Of a DNA stretch of 37,471 nt, positions 5,599 through 37,471 are shown piece after piece. The notes below the pieces were generated by a model. The model saw nothing but the letters and a program-made list of their open reading frames with translations. It had not been told where the DNA came from and ran no database searches. Source of the DNA: an uncultured Schlesneria sp. GTDB lineage: Bacteria; Planctomycetota; Planctomycetia; Planctomycetales; Planctomycetaceae. The stretch spans positions 1-37,471 of the forward strand of contig CAIMFH010000128.1 of NCBI GenBank assembly GCA_903840265.1, written 5' to 3'. Position 1 is the first letter of the stretch, and every line of letters starts with the position of its first letter. A program made the position numbers and the translations under genes.

Positions 5599-5954
5599 CA
5601 TTCGTGTTGGATTCTTCGGAGTCCTTGGAACCTCTGCAGTGTTCGATACGAGACCAGTGCGTTGACCCTACAATTTTGATTTAGTTGGAAGTCAGCTTGG
5701 TTTGGCTGCGCGTATATCCGCGTGACGTTTCGGCGTCTCACGGCTCACACAACCCAGACCTCGCGGCTCCCCCCTGAACTTTCTGGGTTCAGAACCGCGG
5801 TCTTGACCGGCACAGGCGGAGGTTTCTTTTCTGTTTCAGCCCTCCTATCATGGGCTGGGACTCTTGGGTTGATTGTCCCGCCATCGGCCAGTTGTTTTCT
5901 CTGGCCGAAGTGCTTCGGGATCATCTCCAATTTCGTATCGGGGTTGCCAATTCG
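5599..5954. other. Intergenic region before rarA, with one hairpin
   Basis: This 356-bp gap has no convincing gene. An open frame reaches upstream from rarA to 5850, but its residues do not resemble the RarA N-terminus. One clear hairpin is present: CGCGG at 5762-5766 pairs with CCGCG at 5795-5799, and inside it CTGAAC at 5774-5779 pairs with GTTCAG at 5787-5792 around a 7-base loop. A second, weaker hairpin sits near 5722-5745 (GACG and CGTC around TTTCGG). The first could end transcription from the carbamoyltransferase group or sit in the rarA leader. There is no T-run after it, so a terminator call is not made. Confidence 0.4.
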
Positions 5955-23729: not shown

Positions 23730-23804
23730 CGGGATGTAGCTCAGCTTGGCTAGAGCGCTACGTTCGGGACGTAGAGGCCGCAGGTTCGAATCCTGTCATC
23801 CCGA
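23730..23804 (+). tRNA. tRNA-Pro (anticodon CGG)
   Basis: A complete cloverleaf can be drawn. The acceptor stem is CGGGATG (23730-23736) with CATCCCG (23797-23803), discriminator A at 23804. The D stem is GCTC/GAGC, the anticodon stem CTACG (23758-23762) with CGTAG (23770-23774), the loop TTCGGGA with anticodon CGG at 23765-23767, and the T arm GCAGG-TTCGAAT-CCTGT. All acceptor pairs are Watson-Crick. The first pair C-G is typical of bacterial tRNA-Pro. CCA is not encoded. The 3' half overlaps the end of the serine recombinase gene on the other strand and is the presumed attachment site. Confidence 0.96.
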
Positions 23805-25276
23805 CTTTGTTGAGAAATGAGCCCTTCGGCGACAACGTCGAAGGGCTTTCTCATTGTGGGGACGAGAGTTGCGTCTTCGAGTCGGCAGTTCAAAAACACG
23901 ATTTCGAGGATTCGACGCTTCGCCGCGTAATCGGCGGTAAGCCATTGCTGCCGCAGCGTTTGAGAAAGTTCAAAAACTTTCGACGCCAACTCGGCCATTT
24001 CGTCGTGCGAGCGGTCCAGAACGTCGAGTTGCAGCTTGACCGAGGAAAGTCGGTCGCGGAATTCCGTGTGCTTGCGGGCGAAGGTTTCCTGGTCGATGTC
24101 CTCCGACAACCGCATGTTGAGCAAGCGATCTTGCTGCTGAATCAAGAGCGTCTCCTGACGGGTTAGCTCCGCCCGCTGGGCACGGGAATCGGCCTGGGCG
24201 TCCCGTGTCTGCGAAGCCAGCACCATGCGGAACCAATCGCGGACGCCTTCGTCGTCGATCCGCATCTTGTCGAAGACGGCCAGCACCTGGCCATCGAGGT
24301 CGGCTTCCGTCACGCGGGTGCGGGGATGCCCGGCGACGTTGTAGTAGGTGCAGCGGTAATAGTTGTAGAACCGCTCGCCAGATTTCGTCTTCTTCGTCTT
24401 CTGCTCGCCGGTAATCGGATGGCCGCAGTGCCCGCACTGGATGATGTCGCCAGCATAGGTGAGGGCGTGCGACTGGTAGACATGCCCGCCGAGCAGGGCT
24501 TGGACGCGGTTCCACGTCGCCCGGTCGATCAGCGGCTCATGCTTGCCGGGATACCATTCGCCCCGGAATTCAATTTCGCCGATGTAGGCCCGGTCCTTGA
24601 GAATGTTGTGGACGGAGCTTCGCGGGAATTTCGGCATCGAGGCGCGGAACTGCCGACCTTCCGCCGTCAGTTTTTCGACGAGCGTATCGAGCGTGTGATG
24701 ATCCCACGCGAAGAGATGGAAAATGCGACGGACGTTATCGGCTGGGATGGGATCAATCTCGACCATACCGCGACCATCCTTGCGGATGTTGCGATAGCCA
24801 TAAGGACCGCGATTGACGAACCAGCCTTCCTGAACCCGACGGGACAGTCCCTCGCGGACATCGACCGATTGCTGTTCGGTGTAGAAGCTGGCCATGTTGG
24901 CCAGCGTCCGCCGCATCATGCGGCCAGCGGGCGTGTTTTCGGTCGGCTGCGAAACCGAGATGAACGGCAGGTCGTATTCCGACTCCAGCCGTTCGAGTTC
25001 GACGTAATCGAACAGATTGCGGGCGGCACGATCGACCTTATAGAACAGCAGGCCGTCAAGGACGCCCGCATTCTTCTTGGCGTAGTTGACCAGCTCGCGG
25101 AAGGTCTTGCGTTCATCGCCCTTGCTTGCGGTCTCCGCGATGCGATAGAGCTTGACGATTTCGCCGCCAGCCTGAGTGGCGTAACCCTTGAGCGCGTCTT
25201 CCTGCACTTCCAGGCTGAAGCCTTCGCGTTCCTGTTCCCGGCTGCTCACCCGCGCCAAAGCGACGAATTGTTTCAT
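23750..25276 (-). CDS. Large serine recombinase (site-specific integrase)
   Basis: Cuts and rejoins DNA at attachment sites through a covalent phosphoserine link. The 508-aa protein has the resolvase domain with catalytic Ser11 in LARVSSREQ and the Arg-containing DRAARN (82-87), the Recombinase domain (about 155-265, PYGYRNIRKDGRG to GEWYPGKHEPLIDRATW), a zinc ribbon with CGHC (281-284) and Cys309, and a coiled coil (about 360-430). Start 25276 overlaps the previous stop as ATGA and has GGGAG about eight bases before. The last 17 residues are encoded by the antisense strand of tRNA-Pro, and the preceding ones by its terminator, so the C-terminus depends on integration. The functional protein probably ends near residue 465. 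Serine integrases at tRNA 3' ends are less usual than tyrosine ones. Confidence 0.93.
   Translation of the reverse strand: MKQFVALARVSSREQEREGFSLEVQEDALKGYATQAGGEIVKLYRIAETASKGDERKTFRELVNYAKKNAGVLDGLLFYKVDRAARNLFDYVELERLESEYDLPFISVSQPTENTPAGRMMRRTLANMASFYTEQQSVDVREGLSRRVQEGWFVNRGPYGYRNIRKDGRGMVEIDPIPADNVRRIFHLFAWDHHTLDTLVEKLTAEGRQFRASMPKFPRSSVHNILKDRAYIGEIEFRGEWYPGKHEPLIDRATWNRVQALLGGHVYQSHALTYAGDIIQCGHCGHPITGEQKTKKTKSGERFYNYYRCTYYNVAGHPRTRVTEADLDGQVLAVFDKMRIDDEGVRDWFRMVLASQTRDAQADSRAQRAELTRQETLLIQQQDRLLNMRLSEDIDQETFARKHTEFRDRLSSVKLQLDVLDRSHDEMAELASKVFELSQTLRQQWLTADYAAKRRILEIVFLNCRLEDATLVPTMRKPFDVVAEGLISQQSRDDRIRTCGLYVPNVAL
23812..23852. terminator. Terminator hairpin after tRNA-Pro
   Basis: AGCCCTTCG (23820-23828) pairs perfectly with CGAAGGGCT (23839-23847), extended by GAGAAA (23812-23817) with TTTCTC (23847-23852). 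On the plus strand the stem is followed by TTCTCATT. It sits 7 bases after the tRNA and is inside the coding frame of the minus-strand recombinase (about residues 475-488). Confidence 0.72.
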
Positions 25277-25497
25277 GGTGACGACTCCCGACCAAACGCC
25301 TCGTACAAGCGACCCACGTTGAGGATCATTGTAACAGCGTCGTCGGGAGTCAGGCGAGCCTGGTAGTACGGTTGCCAGGTGCGAATTGTTGCCTCGACCA
25401 GTTCCGCAGTGACCCATTCCGGCGTCCCAGCCGGGACGATGCTCTTTCGGGCATCGTCGGCGACTTCGCAATCTTTCTTCCGATTGCTTCGGGACAT
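25273..25497 (-). CDS. Small protein, 74 aa, coupled to the recombinase
   Basis: A short protein of no recognised family, with a basic N-terminus (MSRSNRKKD) and a helical remainder (PEWVTAELVEATIRTWQPYY, then LTPDDAVTMILNVGRLYEAF). Its stop overlaps the recombinase start by the four bases ATGA, which strongly suggests translational coupling and so a real gene. It could be an accessory or control protein for recombination, but this rests only on position. The composition has no membrane segment. Confidence 0.68.
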   Translation of the reverse strand: MSRSNRKKDCEVADDARKSIVPAGTPEWVTAELVEATIRTWQPYYQARLTPDDAVTMILNVGRLYEAFGRESSP

Positions 25498-25602
25498 AAC
25501 GGGAATCCACCACCGCTAAAGAAAAATTGCCGGAGTAACGCGCGCACCATCCACCACGACCCGGTACGGGCCAAAATCAAATCGCTTGAAGGGTGTTGCT
25601 GT

Positions 25603-26239: not shown

Positions 26240-28084
26240 TTATGGCCCATATCCGGTCGGCGGGTGTTCAACGTGCGATCCGTGAATTCGTACCCCCGAA
26301 CATGTCGCCGCGAGCATTAAGGTCAGCAACAGCAGGGACGCCGAGAACATTACGACATGCGCCGTCGGCTTGAATCGCTCCCACCCTCCCGGTTGCCGTG
26401 GGACGAGGGACTCTTCGTAGTAACGGACCAGCCGGGTCCAGATCGGCGGCACGCCCGGTGTGAACGTGATGGCGATACGCTCCGACAACGCCAGCACTTC
26501 TTCAGGCTTCAACAGTTTGCGGCCGTGTTGTGCCCAGTTGTCGTTCTCATTCGATGAGTAACTGGAACTGCTGTCGCCTCTCATCGAGCTTTGATGCGAC
26601 GTACCGGTGCCTGTTCCACCGCTCGAAATCACAATGGTTCCTTCGCCCAGTCGGTTGCTGACATACTCCGCCGTGCCAAGATCATTGACGCCGAAGAAAA
26701 CTTGGCTGACGTTGCTGAGCAGTGTCTGTTCTTGGCCGTCGGGAAAGCACTTCTTGAGCTGACCGAGAGACTGGTAATAAAACTGAAGCCGGACGCCATA
26801 TCCCCGGTACTTATCCACCGCGTCATCCAGTGCCTCCATGTGGCCAAGACTCGCCGCTTCATCCAGAACGAAATGCACTCGATTGCGATTCTCTAACCCG
26901 CCGCGCACGACCGCCCGAAGAAGCGAGCCAATCCACATCCGAAGCAATGGCGACTGCGCCCGCATGTGCTCAGGCGGAAGCACCAAGTAAATTGTCGTCT
27001 TACCGCCCAGCAGATCAGCGGGGTTGAAGCTGCTAGTTTCAGTGCTCTCCAAGACGGCGAGCGTATCGAGGAAGCGCAGGAACCGGTTGGTCGTGGTCAA
27101 CGTCGAACCAAGCTCCTTGTCCTTAAAGTGGGTGAGATTGCACCCCATTCGGGACAAGATTCCTTTCCAGGCTTCGGAAGCGCACATCAGCTTGATGGCC
27201 AGTTCGAGTTTTTCTGGACTCGTCAGCAGCGTCCGTACCGTTTGCAATGACCGGTCCTCGAACTCGGCGTACTGCACGACGAGGGCGATCAGGGTCGCGA
27301 TCCATGCCTCAGCGGAGTCAGTCCAATGCGGGTCTTTTTCCTGTCCGGTACGAATCACCAACGCCTCGCCCAAATCGCGACAATCATCAATCGCCGTAGG
27401 CGACTCCCGATCAATGAACTCAACGGGATTGAACGTATCGGGAATCTGCGAAACCATACGGAATGGATCGAGTACGACGATGCGGTGCCCGAACTCCCGC
27501 CGCCGATGCTCCGAAGTCAGCCGGAAGTTTTCGCCTTTGAAATCCACGACCACGGCAGATTCGTCGGTCGTCAGAAGGAAGGGGATGACACACGACACGC
27601 CTTTGCCCACACCCGTCGGCGCGAACACCGCCGTATGCACGGCTTTCGGCATCCTGACCAGTGCGGGGTTCAACTTCGCTTTTTCCCCAAAGCGGATTGA
27701 CGCCAGGAATTGTTCGCACGCCTGTTTCGACGGCACCGTGAAGTCGAACAGTTCTCTCGTCGCCTTTCGCAAGGGCGGTTTCCCGTCGTCCATCACGCGA
27801 CCAAGGATCGGCCCGCTGCTCGCACCGAGCATTCCTTCCCCTCGCAAGTCATTGGCATCTGCCCAGCGTGCCGTACCGAAAGCGCTGAACGTTTCGCTTC
27901 GACGCCGGGTTATGGCCGCGAGCACGAGAATGATGATCCCGATGATGACCAACCCGCCGAGGTCGAGAATCGCAGACGCCACCGCATAGCCGAATGCCGA
28001 CACGCTGGCGATCAGCATGACGCGGCAGATCGCATATACCGGCAGGTTGATCTTGTTCATGATGTTGCGTGCGTTAATCGTCAT
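26240..28084 (-). CDS. Type IV coupling protein (VirD4/TraG family)
   Basis: An inner-membrane ATPase that brings the relaxase-DNA complex to the secretion channel during conjugation. The 614-aa protein has two N-terminal helices (YAICRVMLIASVSAFGYAVASAIL and LGGLVIIGIIILVLAAI), Walker A APTGVGKG (about 155-163), Walker B VHFVLDEAASLGH, and DDAVDKYRGYGVRLQFYYQSLGQLKKCFP with FFGVNDLGTAEYVSNRLG, all typical of the TraG/VirD4 ATPase. KLLKPEEVLAL near the end is also a family mark. Unusually, a further hydrophobic segment (VVMFSASLLLLTLMLAATCSG) lies at the extreme C-terminus. AAGGGAG is about seven bases before the ATG. No VirB genes are seen beside it. Confidence 0.93.
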   Translation of the reverse strand: MTINARNIMNKINLPVYAICRVMLIASVSAFGYAVASAILDLGGLVIIGIIILVLAAITRRRSETFSAFGTARWADANDLRGEGMLGASSGPILGRVMDDGKPPLRKATRELFDFTVPSKQACEQFLASIRFGEKAKLNPALVRMPKAVHTAVFAPTGVGKGVSCVIPFLLTTDESAVVVDFKGENFRLTSEHRRREFGHRIVVLDPFRMVSQIPDTFNPVEFIDRESPTAIDDCRDLGEALVIRTGQEKDPHWTDSAEAWIATLIALVVQYAEFEDRSLQTVRTLLTSPEKLELAIKLMCASEAWKGILSRMGCNLTHFKDKELGSTLTTTNRFLRFLDTLAVLESTETSSFNPADLLGGKTTIYLVLPPEHMRAQSPLLRMWIGSLLRAVVRGGLENRNRVHFVLDEAASLGHMEALDDAVDKYRGYGVRLQFYYQSLGQLKKCFPDGQEQTLLSNVSQVFFGVNDLGTAEYVSNRLGEGTIVISSGGTGTGTSHQSSMRGDSSSSYSSNENDNWAQHGRKLLKPEEVLALSERIAITFTPGVPPIWTRLVRYYEESLVPRQPGGWERFKPTAHVVMFSASLLLLTLMLAATCSGVRIHGSHVEHPPTGYGP

Positions 28085-30520: not shown

Positions 30521-31036
30521 TCAAGTTACAAACGCCGGAGCATTTTTGCCGAGCCACTCCTTGAGGGCGGCGTGCGACTCGAACTCGGCGACCTCGATCC
30601 TGTCGATGGTCGGTCCAGACTCCCCAACCCGCTTGATATCCTCCTCGGACATTTCTCCGATCCAAAGCACCCGATGGCGTTGCAGACCACCGCGAATGAG
30701 GTCGATGGCACCTTCATTCAGGGGTTGGTCGAGGTTGCTTCCCCGGATCAGCACGAGGTACACCAAGTCGCCGGAGAACTTGAGCAAGAGACCCTCGGAC
30801 GGATTGTGCTTCCAAGTTCCCAGCCAGCCATACGGGAACCACATGCTGTTGCCGTCGCGGAAACGAAACTCAATAGCCGCAGCCTGCTCGCGGATGCCCC
30901 GCAGATAGCCGAACGCCGCACACGACGCTTCGGCTCCCTCAGCCTCCGAGTCTTTATTGACCGAGTACGTGGTGGGGCGATCCCGATCCAGGATGCTCCG
31001 CAAACGTCCTTGATGAGTCGGCTTGTCATCGGCCAT
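30521..31036 (-). CDS. Hypothetical 171-aa protein after the relaxase
   Basis: A soluble protein of no recognised family. It has an acidic middle part with alternating strands and helices (AAIEFRFRDGNSMWFPYGWLG, LLLKFSGDLVYLVLIRG, LNEGAIDLIRGGLQRHRVLWIGEM) and a short helical end. Its start overlaps the relaxase stop by 11 bases and GGGAG lies about seven bases before the ATG, inside the relaxase gene, so the two are co-translated. A role linked to DNA transfer is inferred from this coupling only. Confidence 0.75.
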   Translation of the reverse strand: MADDKPTHQGRLRSILDRDRPTTYSVNKDSEAEGAEASCAAFGYLRGIREQAAAIEFRFRDGNSMWFPYGWLGTWKHNPSEGLLLKFSGDLVYLVLIRGSNLDQPLNEGAIDLIRGGLQRHRVLWIGEMSEEDIKRVGESGPTIDRIEVAEFESHAALKEWLGKNAPAFVT

Positions 31037-33722
31037 TGTCGATCTCCCGTTGTGTCGCCACGTCTCTGGCGATATTCACCTGTTGCGTCTCGTTCCGTCC
31101 CGCAAATCCGCCGAAACCAAGGGCGAATGCCCAGTGTTTCCTAAAGCGATCCTTCAAGGTCGGTTCGTGTGGCGTTGCTTCAGACACATCCGTGGCGGAC
31201 AGAGGATCGTCCGGTCGGCTGACCGCTTTGAGCATCGCGGCCCTGTCGTCCGTGAATAGCAGGGCTTGTTCCCTGCCACGGGTCACGGCCACATAGGCCG
31301 TCCGCTGGTAAGTCGCGGGGAACGACTCGCTCGACACGCCTATGAAAACCTTGTCCACCGTCGCCCCTTGGCTGGCGTGACTGGTGACGACGTATCCGTG
31401 AGTCAAATGGCCGAAGTCGCGGTCGATGACCCAGCCGCGATCGACGATGATGTCGCCGCGTTTCGTGAAGCCCTGAACGGTGAGAGTTGTGCCGTTGTTG
31501 AGCCGGTGCGCACCGTCTTTCGTCTTGCCACCCGCCGTGACCCGCACACGGTCTCCAACTGCCAGAGTGATCTGCGTGGGCCGGTACACCTCGAATTGCT
31601 TGGCAGCTTTCGTCGGCGGATCGACTTCGTCCCGCACGACCAGGCGCGATCCCTTCTTGTACCCAGGTGCGTTTTGGTGGAACTGAACCAGATCCCCGAC
31701 TTGATATTCCGTGGCGTCGGTCTTTTGTGCGTCCGTCAAGTGGGCTGCAACCCACCCACTGACAAGGCGATCTTCGCCAAGCTTGCCCTGAGCCTTCAGC
31801 CCTTCACGGATTGCCAGCGTGATCCGGTTTGCTTCGACGTGCGTCGGCGACACCACGAGGGCCGACTTCGTTTTTCCGTCCTTCTTCGTTTCAGCGGAGG
31901 TGGCCAGATAGGCGTTGGCCAATTGCTGATAACGGTCCGCATCGGAGACCTGTTTGATCCAACCGAGCTTGTCGAGTTCCTGGAATCCCTCCTCAGTCCG
32001 TCCTTCGCTCAGCGCCTTCGCCGCCTGCTTGTAGTCGCCCTGTTGGCGGAAGATGTCCGTCACTTCGGCCACTTGAAGTCCCGCCTTCTCCTCCAAGAGC
32101 TTGAGCGGTTCACCCGCCGTCACGCTGCGGTGTTGACGGCGATCACCCACGAGGATCACACGGGCATCGACCGCATTCGCCACGTCAAACACCTTGAGCA
32201 TGTCCCTCGTGCCGAGTTGGCTGGCCTCGTCAATCAGCAGGACGCCGCCTCGGGCCGATTGCTGCATTTCCTGATTCGTCAGGAACATGGCCACCGTATC
32301 CGCCTTGGCAAAGCCAGCTTCATTCCGCAGCACTCCCCGGCTGGCATCGGCGGACTGTGCCAGGGCGACCACCGGCCGACCCACTTCAGCCAGGGCTTCG
32401 CCGATCTCTTGCTCCAGTGTCGTTTTCCCCGTTCCGGCGACACCACGGATCACCATCACGCGATCACGGGAACCGAGAACGTGCCGGACTGCCGACTTTT
32501 GTTCTGCGTTGAACCAAACGCGGGAGCAGGGCCGGTTCGGATCACCGAGAGGCCGGTAGCGTCCACGCCCCTGACGGGCGAAGTCGATCAGGCGGGATTC
32601 GAGAGTCAACATCTCCTTGGTCGTGGCCAGCGTGCGACCGGCGACGGTGCTGCGAATAAGTGGCCGCGTCTGAACCTCCCGCGTGACGCCCTCGACAGTC
32701 ACCGCTCCGATCCCGCGCTTGAGAGCTTCGGTGACGAGCTTGCGTTCGGGCACAACTGCGTCGCGCACGAAGCTGTGCTCGATGGCATGATCGACGGCAC
32801 CAACTTCACCACGCCCCTTCCTGCCGAATGGAAGCTCGCGCCGGTGGACCGTCGCCATGACGGCTTGTTCCTGGTCGCTCAGTCGTGTGTTCCATTGTTT
32901 GCGTAAGCTGTCCCAGCTCAGCGCCGAGCCTTTCCTCTCGCGGGTTTCAGCCCCGAGTTCGGCTTTGCGGTTCGGATCAGTAATGCCCTTTTCCTGTGCC
33001 ACTTTTTCGATGAGGGCGGTCCGCCGCGAAAATCGCTTCAAGACATTGGCTGGCATTCCGGCGATTTCAAAATCATCCCGTTTCCGCTCCACGCCGAATC
33101 CCAAGTCCTGAAGTCTGTTGGCCAGTCGCACGCGAAACGCCGCCTGGAAGTACGGCGCGTCCCGTTTGAGTTCCCGGAACTGGCCCGCTTTCCAGCGTTG
33201 CTCCTCAGCGTCGAAGGTCGTGTTGAACACGAAGCAGTGGGCGTGCAACTGCGGATCGGGGATGCCATCCACCGGCCGTGACGTGGTGTGAATGAACTCC
33301 GCCCAAACCAGATTGCCCGTGGTGCGATCCACATCCTGGCCTCCCCGGCGAACGCGGGTTTTCATCTCCGCTTCCATGTCTCGCATCGTCTCATCGACCG
33401 AACTGCGGAAGGCGTCCAAGATGTCCTGGTCACCGCTCATCGCATACAGCAGCGAGACCGACTTCGGCACCGAGAACGTGAAGTCGTATCCGACCGTCCG
33501 CTCGGATCGTGTTCGCACCGTCAGCGGTTCTCCGGTTCGGGGATCGAGATTGTCGCACAGCCGCTCGAAGGCGAATTGATCGACCGTCCCTGCGAGTCCG
33601 AGTCGCGCAGCACCTTGGCCGCCGAAGGAGCCAATCAGTTCCTGGCCTTCACGGTAATAGTCCGCCGTCGCGTAATAACGCTTGGCGTCCTTGGCACTGT
33701 TCTGTTGCGTGATGCGGATCAT
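31026..33722 (-). CDS. MobF-family relaxase-helicase (TrwC/TraI-like)
   Basis: Nicks one strand at oriT, stays bound through a tyrosine, and unwinds DNA for conjugative transfer. The 898-aa protein has an N-terminal relaxase domain with tyrosine pairs Tyr16/17 and Tyr22/23, the SVPKSVSLLYA segment, and the metal-binding histidines His145, His160 and His162 in FIHTTSRP and DPQLHAHCF. The helicase part has Walker A RGVAGTGKTT (about 426-435), Walker B LLIDEASQLG, QHRSV and the C-terminal motif VVTSHASQGATVDKVFIG with YVAVTRGREQALLFTDD. Order and spacing match TrwC. It is shorter than F TraI. The 630-bp region upstream of its start is the natural place for oriT. It shares an operon with the 171-aa gene. 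Confidence 0.95.
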   Translation of the reverse strand: MIRITQQNSAKDAKRYYATADYYREGQELIGSFGGQGAARLGLAGTVDQFAFERLCDNLDPRTGEPLTVRTRSERTVGYDFTFSVPKSVSLLYAMSGDQDILDAFRSSVDETMRDMEAEMKTRVRRGGQDVDRTTGNLVWAEFIHTTSRPVDGIPDPQLHAHCFVFNTTFDAEEQRWKAGQFRELKRDAPYFQAAFRVRLANRLQDLGFGVERKRDDFEIAGMPANVLKRFSRRTALIEKVAQEKGITDPNRKAELGAETRERKGSALSWDSLRKQWNTRLSDQEQAVMATVHRRELPFGRKGRGEVGAVDHAIEHSFVRDAVVPERKLVTEALKRGIGAVTVEGVTREVQTRPLIRSTVAGRTLATTKEMLTLESRLIDFARQGRGRYRPLGDPNRPCSRVWFNAEQKSAVRHVLGSRDRVMVIRGVAGTGKTTLEQEIGEALAEVGRPVVALAQSADASRGVLRNEAGFAKADTVAMFLTNQEMQQSARGGVLLIDEASQLGTRDMLKVFDVANAVDARVILVGDRRQHRSVTAGEPLKLLEEKAGLQVAEVTDIFRQQGDYKQAAKALSEGRTEEGFQELDKLGWIKQVSDADRYQQLANAYLATSAETKKDGKTKSALVVSPTHVEANRITLAIREGLKAQGKLGEDRLVSGWVAAHLTDAQKTDATEYQVGDLVQFHQNAPGYKKGSRLVVRDEVDPPTKAAKQFEVYRPTQITLAVGDRVRVTAGGKTKDGAHRLNNGTTLTVQGFTKRGDIIVDRGWVIDRDFGHLTHGYVVTSHASQGATVDKVFIGVSSESFPATYQRTAYVAVTRGREQALLFTDDRAAMLKAVSRPDDPLSATDVSEATPHEPTLKDRFRKHWAFALGFGGFAGRNETQQVNIARDVATQREIDNGR

Positions 33723-34352
33723 GCTTCATTTTAGGCTATCACGAAGTTGGTTAACGATTGGTTTACAAGCCTGTGAATGCTGTCCGCTGCATGGTTCTGA
33801 GCACCGCGTCATTTTCTCAATGCCACCGGAGCGCGTCCGCGATGCCACGTCAATGGCACCGAGTGACCGAGGTCTTTTTCATTTTTTGGTGACTGGTCCT
33901 CGCCATTGCTTGGCGGACACTTAGCCCGATTTCAATGTCCATTGTCCGTTCTGCTTCTCGCCATATGCGACGAGTCGGCGTCCCACAACACCCGGCTGCA
34001 TTTCCGCCTTCAGGTCAGGCGCACACTCTGATTCGTGACGAGCATCTCTGCGCCCAATCGCTTGATAGAGCACGGCTGGCCGGAGCTATCAACGACTTCG
34101 TGTTGGTCGTGCCGACAGGGCGATCTCCCACTTCTGTCCACCGAGCCCACGGCCTGTTTCCTGCCACGCTTAAAGCCGCCGCCGGGCCGGTCAAGCCGAA
34201 AATTGGTTCCCCCTGAAGGTCTCCCCCAATTTTCCGCTGGACCGGTTGGCCAAGTGCCAGGCTGAAGCCCCCGGACTGTGGCGGCTTTTATTCGCTGTGT
34301 CATCAGGCCGCGATGGTCGCGGTCGGAAACTCAAAAAGAAGGAGACGAAACC
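33723..34352. other. Divergent control region between relaxase and plus-strand operon
   Basis: No gene is supported in this 630-bp stretch. It separates the leftward relaxase from the rightward operon, so it should hold promoters for both and is the likely place of oriT. Small inverted repeats include TGCCA/TGGCA (33843-33858) and CGGACA/TGTCCG (33914-33948). The right third holds the large structure described at 34172-34324. Confidence 0.55.
34172..34324 (+). promoter_or_regulatory. Large nested inverted repeat; candidate leader/attenuator or oriT
   Basis: Outer arms AAAGCCGCC (34172-34180) and GGCGGCTTT (34280-34288) pair perfectly, with CCGGG (34182-34186) and CCCGG (34270-34274) inside. 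A 20-bp inner repeat (34187-34206 with 34226-34245) matches at 18 positions around a 19-base loop. A second hairpin, GGCCGCGA/TCGCGGTC (34306-34324), follows; one of its pairs is G-T, which is a G-U pair only if the plus strand is the RNA. The second hairpin ends 12 bases before the ribosome binding site of the first operon gene. Confidence 0.55.
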
Positions 34353-34789: not shown

Positions 34790-35416
34790 ATGACCCATTT
34801 CACCGTCGGCATTATCGTCCCGCAGGACAAGCTGCCCCAGATCCAGTCTTTCATCTGCCACCAGATGCGACCCTATGACCACAGCATCACGGTAGAACCT
34901 TATGTCTGCTACTCCCTCGACATGGCCCAGGCCGAAATCGACCGTGACATTTGTCAGATGGAGCAGGTCGTCGCACATCAAGACCCGAACTACCGTCTCG
35001 ACAACTGCCGCGAACGCCTCGCCAGACTCCGACTCACGACACCAGAAGACCGTTATCGCGAGTACGCTCAAACGCACGAGCACTTCAATGCTCAGGGTGA
35101 GCCACTCAGCACATACAACCCAGACGGCAAATGGGATTGGTGGGTCGTCGGTGGCCGCTGGAATGGCTGGGTTACGGGCAACAAAAGCGACAGTCGTGAT
35201 TTGGTCGAGGACAATCTCGCGCCGGTCGAACAGGCGATCCAACGCGGCGTGATCCCGCACGCGATCATCACGCCTGATGGCCAGTGGCATGAACACGGAA
35301 AACTCGCTTGGTGGGCCATCGTGTTCACCGAGAACGAAGACTGGAGCGCCCAAGCGAAGGAAATTCTCTCCGGATACCCCGGTCACCAGTTGCTCATCCT
35401 CGATGCTCACATCTAA
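34790..35416 (+). CDS. Hypothetical 208-aa protein
   Basis: A soluble protein of no recognised family. The N-terminus HFTVGIIVPQDKLPQIQSFICHQM looks like a beta-alpha-beta unit; the middle is acidic and helical (MAQAEIDRDICQMEQVVAHQDP), and a Trp-rich stretch WDWWVVGGRWNGWVTG sits near residues 118-133. The C-terminal part includes HAIITPDGQWHEHGKLAWWAIVF. GGGAGG precedes the start. The Trp/Gly-rich motif and the layout resemble proteins seen in phages and conjugative elements, but no function is claimed. Confidence 0.75.
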   Translation: MTHFTVGIIVPQDKLPQIQSFICHQMRPYDHSITVEPYVCYSLDMAQAEIDRDICQMEQVVAHQDPNYRLDNCRERLARLRLTTPEDRYREYAQTHEHFNAQGEPLSTYNPDGKWDWWVVGGRWNGWVTGNKSDSRDLVEDNLAPVEQAIQRGVIPHAIITPDGQWHEHGKLAWWAIVFTENEDWSAQAKEILSGYPGHQLLILDAHI

Positions 35417-35436
35417 CCCACGAAAGGAGTCACACC

Positions 35437-35628
35437 ATGCCAAAACTCAATCTGAGAAATTCGACGGATGCCGCCTTGGACGCATTTTGGGCAGTGATCG
35501 TGAACCGCTATCCCCAGGCGGTGACCGGCGATCTTTCACCCGGAGCAACCATCGCTCTGCAACTGGCCGCCGAGGATGCCGTCTACGAATGGATCGTGAG
35601 CAACGTCCCCGAGCAATTCAGAAAATAG
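35437..35628 (+). CDS. Hypothetical 63-aa protein
   Basis: A small helical protein (AALDAFWAVIVNRYPQAVTGDLSPGATIALQLAAEDAVYEWIVSNVPEQF). A perfect AAAGGAG lies eight bases before the ATG. It is part of the tight plus-strand operon, ending 11 bases before the methyltransferase-like gene. No family is recognised. Confidence 0.68.
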   Translation: MPKLNLRNSTDAALDAFWAVIVNRYPQAVTGDLSPGATIALQLAAEDAVYEWIVSNVPEQFRK

Positions 35629-35639
35629 GAGAATCAATC

Positions 35640-36416
35640 ATGCAGCACAAAACCATCAATCCGTTCTATGCCGCCCGCTTGCGGCACAGCGTCCCGACTC
35701 GCCCCGATGAACCATTCGCTCCGGTCTACGCCCGGCTCCCATTGGCACCGAGAAACGCGAGTCGCGTTCCGCATCTCACGAGTCTCTACCACTTCCACCG
35801 AGCCGGTGACTATGGCGACCGCAGTTACCCCGGAAACTGCGGCGGCAATCTCATCAAGGATTTATTGCTGTATTTCCGACCGACTCTCATTTGCGATCCG
35901 ATGGCCGGATCTGGCACTTGCCGTGATGTCTGTGATGAACTCGGCTTGCCCTGCTACTCGTGGGACATCCACCAGGGCTTTGACGCCTGCGATCCCACGG
36001 ACTTCTCGATGGAAGAGACCTTCGACTTCATCTGGTCACATCCCGCTTACTGGCGACAGAAGCTTTACGCCGATGATCCCCGCGACCTGTCGCGTTCGCC
36101 GACTCTGGAACACTTCCTCCGTCGTTACGGTCAATTCATTCGCAACAGTGCCCGTGCTCTCAAACCCGGCGGCAAGCTGGCGATCTTGATGGGCGATTAT
36201 AGTGATCGCACCGAGGGTTTCGTGCCCCTCACCTGGCACACGAAACGGCTTGCCTTCGCCGCCGGACTACGGCAATGTTGTACCGACATCATTCGCTTCA
36301 GCCACGGAGCCAGCAGTTCGCGAAAGGTCTATCGCTCGTCCTTCATTCCCGGTCTGCATGACACTTGCATGGTTTTCGAGCGACCGATCACGTCGCAGAA
36401 AGGAGGCCGCGTATGA
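35640..36416 (+). CDS. DNA methyltransferase-like protein with altered motif IV
   Basis: A 258-aa protein with the fold marks of an SAM-dependent DNA methylase. Motif I is DPMAGSGTC (86-94), the SAM-binding loop. Motif IV, usually (D/N/S)PP(Y/F), reads SHPAYW (133-138), so the second Pro is Ala. RALKPGGKLAILMGDY is a typical later segment, and the C-terminal part RFSHGASSSRKVYRSSFIPGLHD is characteristic of its subfamily. The protein lacks an obvious target recognition domain. AGGAG lies about nine bases before the ATG; the stop overlaps the next start as ATGA. It may methylate adenine or cytosine in the element's DNA, protect it from restriction, or have lost activity. There is no companion nuclease. 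Confidence 0.78.
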   Translation: MQHKTINPFYAARLRHSVPTRPDEPFAPVYARLPLAPRNASRVPHLTSLYHFHRAGDYGDRSYPGNCGGNLIKDLLLYFRPTLICDPMAGSGTCRDVCDELGLPCYSWDIHQGFDACDPTDFSMEETFDFIWSHPAYWRQKLYADDPRDLSRSPTLEHFLRRYGQFIRNSARALKPGGKLAILMGDYSDRTEGFVPLTWHTKRLAFAAGLRQCCTDIIRFSHGASSSRKVYRSSFIPGLHDTCMVFERPITSQKGGRV

Positions 36417-36742
36417 GCGAGACGTTCATCGAACTCACCGAAGACGACTTTGACGACCAGTATCCGCTGATTCCGAATCACATGAACCGGTCCGCAGGCT
36501 GGGCCATCGGCGATGACGGCGGATGCCTGTTCGAGACCTACGGCCAGGAGTTGGATTTCGTCAAGCGGCAGGATCGACGACGGGTCTGGACGCTCATCGA
36601 TGGCGACGACGGCGACTTGTACGTGGTCAGTGGGCTGCATCATTTCAACCGTGTGGGCTACCTGCTGAGTCGCGACCCGATCCCCGATGGCACGTTCATT
36701 CAAGTCCGGATTCCGATGGAAACCGACGACGAAGGAGCCTGA
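36413..36742 (+). CDS. Hypothetical 109-aa acidic protein
   Basis: An acidic protein coupled to the methyltransferase-like gene through ATGA, with AAAGGAGG upstream. Segments include FIELTEDDFDDQYPLIPNHMN, WAIGDDGGCLFETYGQEL, VWTLIDGDDGDLYVVSGLHHFNRVGYLLS and GTFIQVRIPME. It looks like a small beta-sheet domain; similar small proteins recur on proteobacterial conjugative plasmids as unknowns. Its strong negative charge could mimic DNA, which is a guess. Confidence 0.72.
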   Translation: MSETFIELTEDDFDDQYPLIPNHMNRSAGWAIGDDGGCLFETYGQELDFVKRQDRRRVWTLIDGDDGDLYVVSGLHHFNRVGYLLSRDPIPDGTFIQVRIPMETDDEGA

Positions 36743-36744
36743 CC

Positions 36745-36945
36745 ATGACCGTGTCAGACGACGATGACATTCTCGGCGAGTTGTTCCACGGTTGTGCCTT
36801 GGCAGCGTTCGTGGATCAGGCCATCGCAGAGGGAGGACCGCCCGATTGCGAAGCGACGCGCTGCCGGGCCTATCGGTACTACGAAGAAGCCCTGGCCGAA
36901 AAGAATGCCGCGAACCAGTCAGGGCTTGGTCCGGCATCGAAGTAG
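36745..36945 (+). CDS. Hypothetical 66-aa protein
   Basis: A short protein (start MTVSDDDDILGELFHGC, then AAFVDQAIAEGGPPDCEATRCRAYRYYEEALAEKNA), acidic at first and helical after. GAAGGAG lies about seven bases before the ATG. It starts 3 bases after the previous stop and closes the visible operon. No family recognised. Confidence 0.65.
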   Translation: MTVSDDDDILGELFHGCALAAFVDQAIAEGGPPDCEATRCRAYRYYEEALAEKNAANQSGLGPASK

Positions 36946-36986
36946 CCGGAACACGGCTGGTCGCAGGCGGACCGGGCAACTCAAGG

Positions 36987-37189
36987 CGGGGGGTGCATCC
37001 CCCGCAGCGTCAAGGATACCCTGCGGCGAGCGGTACGGCTCCTCCCCGATCTTCCGCGCTCGCAAAGCCTCGCTTGTGCAGACCGGGTGCCCCTCCATAC
37101 CGCTCGTCCTTGACTCCGCTCCCCCCTTTCACTTTGGGCTTTCGCCCCCCTTCCGCCGAAAAACGCTGTTCGCGTTTCGCGTAAGGGGG
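36987..37189 (-). ncRNA. Candidate structured RNA with pseudoknot
   Basis: Perfect pairings are GTCAAGGA (37009-37016) with TCCTTGAC (37107-37114) and CGAGCGGTA (37027-37035) with TACCGCTCG (37098-37106). Inside are CCCGATC/GACCGGG (37045-37051/37081-37087) and GCAAAGC with GCTTGTGC (37062-37079). CTGCGG in the bulge (37021-37026) can pair with CCGCAG (37002-37007), which crosses the first stem and makes a pseudoknot. CCCCCTT/AAGGGGG (37146-37189) with AAACGC/GCGTTT inside closes the other side. Read from the minus strand, the GGGC hairpin at 37136-37147 has a GAAA tetraloop, and the one mismatch becomes a U-G pair, so minus is preferred. Confidence 0.5.
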
Positions 37190-37440
37190 AACCACTCATT
37201 CAACATTCCGACCAAACGCACCGATGAGTCTCAACGAACCACCCGGCACGCCGCACCCGTTCGGGCATCGCGGCGACAATGCACAGAGATTCCGAAAGGG
37301 GCAGGCTGGTCGATGCCAGCCATTGCTCACTCCATGCTGCTCCTGTTCCAACTTTCTCTTCTCGCGGACCTCTCTCTCAGCCCCGCCGGGCCTTTAGTTC
37401 GGTGATGCTGAAGCCGCAGCCAGCTCATGCAAGCTGCCAA

Positions 37441-37467
37441 GACGGTTTCCCTGCGGGAGCCTCCGTC
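37441..37467 (+). terminator. Terminator-like hairpin at window end
   Basis: GACGG (37441-37445) pairs with CCGTC (37463-37467) and TCCC (37448-37451) with GGGA (37455-37458) around TGC. TTT follows, and the window ends before the tail can be judged. It might end the plus-strand operon or be a leader element of the next gene. Confidence 0.4.
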
Positions 37468-37471
37468 TTTC

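What the first reader, a model, noticed from the sequence alone, without database searches (positions are those of the whole stretch)
36987..37189. Compact pseudoknot-capable RNA element in a transfer element
Over about 200 bases there are two perfect stems of 8 and 9 bp that share one continuous 3' strand (37098-37114), a 10-base bulge whose CTGCGG pairs with CCGCAG outside the first stem (crossing pairs), two nested inner stems, and a separate double stem at 37146-37189. The GGGC hairpin gives a GAAA tetraloop and the only mismatched pair becomes U-G only if the minus strand is the transcript. No gene fits here. This is far more ordered structure than chance would give in 200 bases, and it lies directly after the plus-strand operon, which suggests a conserved regulatory or functional RNA of the element.
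Basis: partly seen in the sequence, partly recalled or inferred. Interest (0 to 1): 0.72.

Follow-up and report, generated by a model that had tools for sequence, protein, structure and literature searches.

The report
Folding DNA switch on transferred strand
A 200-base stretch beside a DNA-transfer element folds into a conserved shape and probably acts while the DNA is still single-stranded in its new cell, helping to switch on early protective genes; related stretches sit on plasmids of other bacteria.

Summary
The structure is real. Window 36986-37192 is one copy of a ~200-base non-coding element that folds on the minus strand: 28 of 38 pairs show changes on both sides; G-T cells outnumber A-C cells 101:35 on a free alignment. 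It matches no Rfam family. A model found it in 59 of 397 genomes of the class. ArdC homology begins just downstream in 61 of 87 copies with context, though not in the window, whose genome shows no ArdC domain. Where a MOBF relaxase is in view, the folded strand is the relaxase-sense strand in 43 of 45; on the relaxase tree the element changes side 10 times, strand once. Related elements lie on alphaproteobacterial plasmids, up to eight each. In six plasmids with a recognisable MOBP nick site (of nine loci searched) the folded strand is the transferred strand in 15 of 17 copies. Best reading: a single-stranded-DNA signal, most likely a promoter, for early gene expression in the recipient. It works like Frpo of the F plasmid but is unrelated in sequence and shows no -35/-10 boxes. 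The RNA reading is less likely; the pseudoknot is not supported.

The parts
36986..37192 (-). Whole structured element (covariance-model match 1-206 of 206); the folded strand is the minus strand
   Evidence: R1 209.3 bits, E 6.6e-60 (this sequence is also in the training set); blastn homologues begin at 36989 and end near 37189
37146..37189 (-). Stem P1 (arms 37146-37156 and 37179-37189) with inner stems, nearest the downstream gene
   Evidence: 91% complementary; all 8 modelled pairs have changes on both sides in homologues (helix 1)
37004..37119 (-). Stem P2: arms 37004-37016 and 37107-37119, core GTCAAGGA/TCCTTGAC almost invariant, outer 4 bp covary
   Evidence: helix 2: 95.4% of cells paired, 9 of 12 pairs with changes on both sides
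37027..37106 (-). Stem P3 (arms 37027-37038 and 37095-37106); its one C-A mismatch on the plus strand is a G-T pair on the minus strand
   Evidence: helix 3
37045..37087 (-). Stem P4 (arms 37045-37052 and 37080-37087) that carries the cap
   Evidence: helix 4: 95.1% paired
37051..37081 (-). Cap, minus strand CTGCACAAGCGA-N-GAGCGCGGAAG, the most conserved part, found on quite different stems in other phyla
   Evidence: nearly invariant columns; 50 stretches of the 84,980-genome collection
36988..37003 (-). Hairpin GGGGGATGCACCCCCC at the 3' end of the folded strand
   Evidence: helix 7 (97.1% paired)
37136..37147 (-). GGGC-GAAA-GCCC hairpin, conserved in near relatives only
31026..33722 (-). 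MOBF (TrwC-type) relaxase of the transfer element; its sense strand is the element's folded strand
   Evidence: PF08751 E 1.8e-70; orientation
33915..33922 (-). Candidate nick site AAGTGTCC 200 bases 5' of the relaxase start (resembles R388 TATTGTCT/A); unproven, no stable hairpin beside it
   Evidence: R388 sequence from PMC4814116 (passages)
26240..28084 (-). Type IV coupling protein
   Evidence: PF02534 E 2.6e-71
35277..36416 (+). DNA-methylase-like gene of the plus operon upstream of the element
   Evidence: PF01555 E 0.002, below the curated cut-off

Best explanation
The element is a cis-acting DNA signal that works while the transfer element is single-stranded in the recipient. Shown: it is a conserved structure of the minus strand; in most copies with context it lies directly 5' of a plus-strand gene, ardC above all; its strand follows the direction of transfer; on related plasmids with a recognisable nick site the folded strand is the transferred strand (T-strand) in 15 of 17 copies. 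Inferred: after entry the T-strand folds into the P2-P3-P4-cap hairpin plus P1; a host factor, most likely RNA polymerase, recognises it; transcription starts at its base and uses the T-strand as template, so that ArdC, ParB, SSB, DUF932 or RadC-type proteins are made before the second strand exists. The transcript may also prime second-strand synthesis, as reported for Frpo. In the window the next plus gene lies beyond the contig end (parA in two near relatives, L030 and L032). It works like the ssDNA promoter Frpo but is not a sequence member of that family.
For: Covariation: 28 of 38 pairs with changes on both sides, 94.3% of cells paired, 0 of 500 shuffles as high on any of five measures. 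Strand: G-T versus A-C cells 101:35 (structure predicted on the minus strand) and 74:49 (predicted on the plus strand) on a free alignment; 138:12 and 59:7 on CM-fitted alignments, which lean to the model; 72:22 for 16 rows of the plasmid form. Position: ArdC homology directly downstream in 61 of 87; in-frame ATG 14-39 bases past the element in 43 of 52; 14 plasmid copies with a start codon 19-22 bases past the blastn end (coordinates). Polarity: 43 of 45; side changes 10 times on the relaxase tree, strand once; control ORFs 90:103. T-strand: 15 of 17 copies in six plasmids with a (C/T)ATCCTG(C/T) motif on one strand of the searched interval (consensus in PMC3772185 passages). Copies per plasmid: 8 on pNHA01 and 4 in the pGXY020 stretch, all on one strand, before ssb, DUF932 and ParB operons among others; F has ssb, ParB and DUF932 genes behind its two Frpo-region copies. 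ArdC is needed in the recipient, not the donor, for R388 transfer to P. putida (PMC7213743 abstract).
Against: No transcription or single-strand activity was measured. No sigma-70-like promoter in window 36700-37471 on either strand (plasmid copies were not scanned), and the best-conserved part is a GC-rich cap unlike the -35/-10 boxes reported for Frpo. The window's own genome has no ArdcN match, so the commonest partner gene is absent here. For the planctomycete elements the nick strand is only a candidate; F and R388, by recall, transfer the strand antisense to the relaxase gene. Two of 17 plasmid copies and two of 45 planctomycete copies (one genome, G232) lie the other way. Twenty-six of 87 copies have no ArdC downstream, some because the contig ends. 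Eight of 40 plasmid copies have no listed gene within 250 bases downstream. The cap also tops hairpins at ordinary chromosomal sites in Treponema and Ruminococcaceae, which a transfer-only role does not explain. In pNHA01 and pGXY020 the gap to the gene is about 200 bases.
Confidence: 0.66

Rival explanations
1. A minus-strand non-coding RNA, transcribed from a promoter between the element and the next gene or inside that gene.
For: The minus strand is the folded strand and G-U-type pairs outnumber A-C; covariation is typical of structured RNA. A TTTT follows the 3' hairpin within a few bases in some homologues (L006; L126 and L153).
Against: The start codon of the next plus gene mostly lies 14-39 bases past the element, leaving little room for a promoter; no terminator-like site in window 36700-37471 and no consistent T run in the homologues (by eye); no Rfam family; the strand follows transfer direction, for which an RNA gives no reason.
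Confidence: 0.12
2. A signal for priming second-strand synthesis on the T-strand (single-strand initiation site), not for expressing the next gene. Not exclusive of the best explanation.
For: T-strand location, several copies per plasmid and strand conservation fit equally well; [quoted passage not shown]
Against: A pure priming site need not sit at a near-fixed 19-22 or 14-39 bases before start codons.
Confidence: 0.2
3. A mRNA leader acting as RNA on the plus strand (riboregulator of ardC, parB, radC).
For: It is the 5' region of these genes and the plus strand also folds.
Against: Pairs that are not Watson-Crick are mostly G-T on the minus strand, hence C-A on the plus strand; a leader has no reason to keep its orientation to the relaxase gene.
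Confidence: 0.08
4. Origin of transfer or relaxase binding site.
For: Hairpin in a transfer element.
Against: Several copies per plasmid, often kilobases from the relaxase and on either side; the MOBP nick motifs lie elsewhere.
Confidence: 0.03
5. A REP- or MITE-like selfish repeat that happens to sit in intergenic DNA.
For: Multiple copies per plasmid; caps on varied stems in other phyla.
Against: Preferred place and strand before particular genes, and pairs kept by compensatory change.
Confidence: 0.05

Closest known systems
Frpo / ssi single-stranded DNA promoters of F and related enterobacterial plasmids (PMC9849209, PMC11541004; passages read)
   Same: Long stem-loop of the T-strand before leading-region genes, T-strand as template, two copies in F; nearby genes (ssb, ParB family, DUF932, antirestriction) are of the same kinds.
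   Different: No match of our model to the F leading region and only 17-34-base blastn pieces, E 0.034-0.082; no -35/-10 boxes found in the window; a conserved GC-rich cap instead; found in planctomycete genomes and alphaproteobacterial plasmids.
sso-type single-strand origins of rolling-circle plasmids and ICEs (recalled, not searched)
   Same: Strand-specific, non-coding, folded, said to be used by RNA polymerase.
   Different: Not tested against sso sequences; tight coupling to start codons is not expected of an sso.
Rfam structured RNAs of mobile elements
   Same: Conserved non-coding structure with covariation.
   Different: No family at its gathering score over the element; only a chance-level whalefall-1 match outside it, E 0.77.

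Membership tests
Frpo/ssi single-stranded promoter family | Sequence similarity to known Frpo | tested here: not met
   R1 finds nothing in L255, the F leading region, which holds two 89%-identical regions at the places described for Frpo1 and Frpo2; our queries give only short pieces there, E 0.034-0.082
Frpo/ssi single-stranded promoter family | Canonical -35 and -10 boxes rebuilt in the hairpin | tested here: not met
   0 promoter-like sites in window 36700-37471 (plasmid copies not scanned); a TTGAC is nearly invariant in stem P2 but no -10 was seen at a fitting distance (by eye)
Frpo/ssi single-stranded promoter family | Structure formed by the transferred strand | tested here: met
   15 of 17 copies on six nick-mapped plasmids; for the window itself only a candidate nick site
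Frpo/ssi single-stranded promoter family | Lies 5' of leading-region genes with the T-strand as template | tested here: met
   ArdC downstream in 61 of 87 copies; 32 of 40 plasmid copies by gene tables; in the window the contig ends first
Frpo/ssi single-stranded promoter family | Recruits RNA polymerase on ssDNA | not testable with these tools
   needs in vitro transcription
Any Rfam 15 family | Score at or above the family's gathering cut-off | tested here: not met
   window; eight loci with the cap, five matches with E up to 5, all below their cut-offs
MOBF origin of transfer | Nick site with adjoining inverted repeat next to the relaxase gene | tested here: not met
   Element lies 3.3 kb from the relaxase start here, up- or downstream in relatives

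The most novel reading that the evidence does not exclude
A cross-phylum class of single-stranded-DNA signal that is read through a conserved GC-rich cap and not through -35/-10 boxes, that is, an ssDNA promoter or primer site with a so far unknown receptor, carried by planctomycete integrative elements and proteobacterial conjugative plasmids, and reused at chromosomal sites in Treponema and Ruminococcaceae.
Probability: 0.3. Interest if true: 0.9.

Novelty: new variant of a known kind. Interest (0 to 1): 0.78.

Why it matters
How an incoming conjugative DNA makes protective proteins before it is double-stranded has been worked out mainly for enterobacterial plasmids, as far as the papers seen here tell. 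A second, unrelated folded-DNA element in front of the same kinds of genes, in planctomycete genomes and alphaproteobacterial plasmids, would suggest that early expression from single-stranded DNA is a general and convergent strategy. It gives a searchable signature for leading regions and counter-defence genes outside the enterobacteria, and a conserved cap whose receptor can be sought.

Tried and rejected
RNA families: none. Pseudoknot: not conserved. Coding: no frame open in all 22 homologues. Sigma-70 promoter or terminator in window 36700-37471: none. Viral contigs: 0 matches to the cap pattern. The 30-base cap by blastn gave weak hits in 73 plasmid and 75 phage records (E 0.05 or more in the rows listed), many on the palindrome GAGCGAAGCGAGC; the four that I read (a Microviridae genome, a Halorubrum virus, a Macrococcoides plasmid, bajarodmic virus 977) lack the full cap, so I dropped the lot. 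E. coli genomes: no match. MOBF nick site: AAGTGTCC-like motif in 14 of 41 upstream regions (3 of 41 on the other strand), 13 of them at -190 to -201, but no stable hairpin beside it, so left as a candidate. A mismatch pattern with a wrong fixed gap found nothing and was replaced by a variable gap. Literature: Frpo, cap sequence (48), candidate structured RNAs (69), Treponema/planctomycete hairpin (70), MOBF nick (78), MOBP nick (120), ssDNA promoters: no paper on this element seen in those listings; most subscription papers are not held. Sso sequences were not searched.

Full report
What is there. The finding lies at the right end of a 37,471-base contig (G000:C128). The contig holds part of an apparent integrative transfer element: a tRNA gene (plus strand) beside a serine recombinase (23730-25513), a coupling protein (26240-28084), a MOBF relaxase (31026-33722), these three genes on the minus strand, and a divergent plus operon with a weakly methylase-like gene (35277-36416). 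After that operon comes the structured stretch. Its genome is only a handle, but contigs of genomes in the same family, matched by length, bear titles such as Planctomyces sp.. Both strands fold better than all 200 shuffles, the minus strand best (RNA z -4.11 against -3.21; DNA z -4.01 against -3.80).

Homologues. blastn found matches in 16 of 99 relatives (E to 0.001) and 16 of 170 genomes of the family (E to 1e-6), the window's own genome included each time, where it has one copy. Most of the strong matches begin at 36989 and end near 37189. Twenty-two copies gave alignment A1 and a covariance model R1. R1 matched 59 of 397 genomes of the class at E 0.001. I fetched up to 20 kb round most of these matches and rescored: 53 matches in 51 sources (L162, a Thiothrix plasmid, among them; L045 gave none) and 34 in 33 sources, 87 in all. 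The sequences of A1 match R1 by construction.

Structure and strand. In A2, 28 of the 38 pairs have changes on both sides, 94.3% of cells pair, and none of 500 shuffles reaches the observed value on any of five measures; sliding the partner by 1-3 columns drops pairing to 40-53%. In P1 (helix 1) all 8 pairs have changes on both sides. Non-Watson-Crick cells are G-T more often than A-C when read on the minus strand: 101:35 in a free alignment with a structure predicted on the minus strand, 74:49 with one predicted on the plus strand, and 138:12 and 59:7 in alignments fitted to the model, which lean that way. So the minus strand is the one under selection to fold. This cannot by itself tell RNA from single-stranded DNA. 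The crossing CTGCGG/CCGCAG pairing is complete in 2 of 22 sequences.

Place. Pfam confirmed ArdC (ArdcN PF08401 plus MPTase-PolyVal PF18818) as the next plus-strand gene in 8 of 10 tested loci (the HMM later found it in a ninth, L057). With an HMM made from those eight, ArdC homology begins 7-109 bases beyond the element on the plus strand in 61 of 87 copies. Among the other 26 some contigs end first, the window too (279 bases left), and the near relatives L030 and L032 have parA 380-485 bases on. The nearest in-frame ATG is 14-39 bases past the element in 43 of 52 copies, 4 bases in 2, and inside the element in 7. The other way round, 13 of 30 ArdcN loci from 59 relatives carry the element, 13 of the 15 best-scoring ones; the window's own genome has no ArdcN match.

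Polarity. A MOBF relaxase is in view for 45 copies; the folded strand is the relaxase-sense strand in 43, and the 2 exceptions come from one genome, G232. Copies are not independent. On a quick maximum-likelihood tree of 43 relaxase rows (41 different), the side of the relaxase on which the element lies changes 10 times (at least 5 forced by well-supported branches), the strand relation once. Other ORFs of 250 residues or more in the same 43 loci are 90 on the relaxase strand and 103 opposite. Position is free, strand is not; a signal that acts on one strand of the transferred DNA would behave so.

Plasmids. A Thiothrix plasmid carries a full-architecture homologue 6-10 bases before radC. The Sphingobium, Gluconobacter and Thiothrix versions found 49, 15 and 78 plasmid records (the lists overlap), 26, 9 and 36 of them typed conjugative. 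I read stretches of 16 plasmid records and, with the genome loci L147 and L136, placed 40 copies. By my reading of the gene tables and ORF lists, 32 of 40 have a plus-strand gene within 250 bases downstream, or an annotated ArdC-type gene that overlaps the element: ArdC/zincin, ParB, DUF3768, DUF932, RadC, a small gene just before ssb, DUF3991/toprim or hypothetical proteins. PLSDB tables are incomplete. Fourteen copies have the start codon 19-22 bases past the blastn end. pNHA01 has 8 copies (a duplicated unit of 4; its last 1.5 kb were not read) and the fetched pGXY020 stretch 4, all on one strand.

Transferred strand. MOBP relaxases nick at (C/T)ATCCTG(C/T) (PMC3772185, passages read). I searched intervals of 300-1100 bases beside the relaxase genes of nine loci. 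In six plasmids the motif occurs once, on one strand only. The folded strand is the nicked strand for 2 of 2 copies in each of L220-L223, 4 of 5 in L217 (one of the four partial) and 3 of 4 in L213: 15 of 17. Of the other three loci two (L210, L219) are MOBF plasmids, and in L212 the interval did not reach the relaxase start. Some of these plasmids are close kin, so these are not 17 independent cases. In the planctomycete set the nick site is only a candidate: AAGTGTCC-like, in 14 of 41 upstream regions against 3 of 41 on the other strand, 13 of the 14 at -190 to -201 from the relaxase start, on the relaxase-sense strand, resembling R388 TATTGTCT/A (PMC4814116, passages) but without a stable hairpin.

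Mechanism. Frpo of the F plasmid folds on the incoming strand and rebuilds -35 and -10 boxes; with Frpo1 or Frpo2 deleted, the fusions to ygeA, ssb and yfjA showed no significant rise in recipients (PMC9849209, passages). Such promoters are common in leading regions (PMC11541004, passages). ArdC is required in the recipient, not the donor, in R388 transfer to P. putida (PMC7213743, abstract; passages). The present element has the place, strand, copy number and gene partners of such a promoter. I therefore read it as a single-stranded-DNA signal for immediate expression, with RNA polymerase as the likeliest reader and priming of the second strand as a possible added role. Not shown: transcription, the receptor, the start site. 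No -35/-10 pair is found in the window and the cap is GC-rich, so recognition should differ from Frpo; R1 has no match in the F leading region.

Loose end. The cap alone (23 fixed bases, variable gap) occurs in 50 stretches of the 84,980-genome collection, in records titled Treponema, Ruminococcaceae, Verrucomicrobiales and several Alphaproteobacteria besides planctomycetes. In Treponema and Ruminococcaceae it tops long, nearly perfect stems of unrelated sequence between chromosomal genes; eight of the non-planctomycete genomes have 1-4 copies each. A transfer-only role does not explain these.

Verdict. A real, conserved, strand-specific element; the RNA reading is partly right (structure, strand) and probably wrong in substance. 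New variant of a known kind, interest 0.78.

Noticed in passing
L122, L124, L130, L140, L154 (Treponema) and L112, L119, L137 (Ruminococcaceae, Saccharofermentans): The same 30-base cap sits on long, nearly perfect stems of unrelated sequence between chromosomal genes, often at their 3' ends; in Treponema a purine-rich internal loop (GGA/GGGA or GTA/GAGA) lies below it; three tandem copies in L137 5977-6121.
   Followed up: partly
L210/L211 (NZ_CP117864.1, pNHA01): The plasmid looks like a tandem duplication of a unit of about 50.8 kb; the second MOBF relaxase region differs from the first (a shorter relaxase-domain gene with other genes beside it).
   Followed up: no
window 5628-5826: Rfam 6S RNA match (48.2 bits, just above the cut-off of 46.4).
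   Followed up: no
window 33915-33922 and upstream regions of related relaxases: AAGTGTCC-like motif at a nearly constant 200 bases before the relaxase start, possible MOBF nick site without a hairpin.
   Followed up: partly
bases just after the element in planctomycete ardC loci: A recurrent CATTTTC-like stretch follows the element in many loci, then a Shine-Dalgarno-like GGGAG before the ATG; the former may be a melted start region.
   Followed up: no
L054 3422-9097, L088 11013-13610, L094, L043: In these loci without ardC next to the element a long protein (methylase-like in L054 and L088 by Pfam, helicase domains too in L054) lies about 0.6-1.4 kb downstream; in L054, L094 and L043 a small ORF with MQYKTIVL is read in another frame inside it.
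   Followed up: no
right ends of the window contig and of G056:C56, G058:C586; left ends of G139:C34, G042:C11, G068:C59: Several assemblies break within about 300-1600 bases downstream of the element, as if repeated sequence followed it.
   Followed up: no
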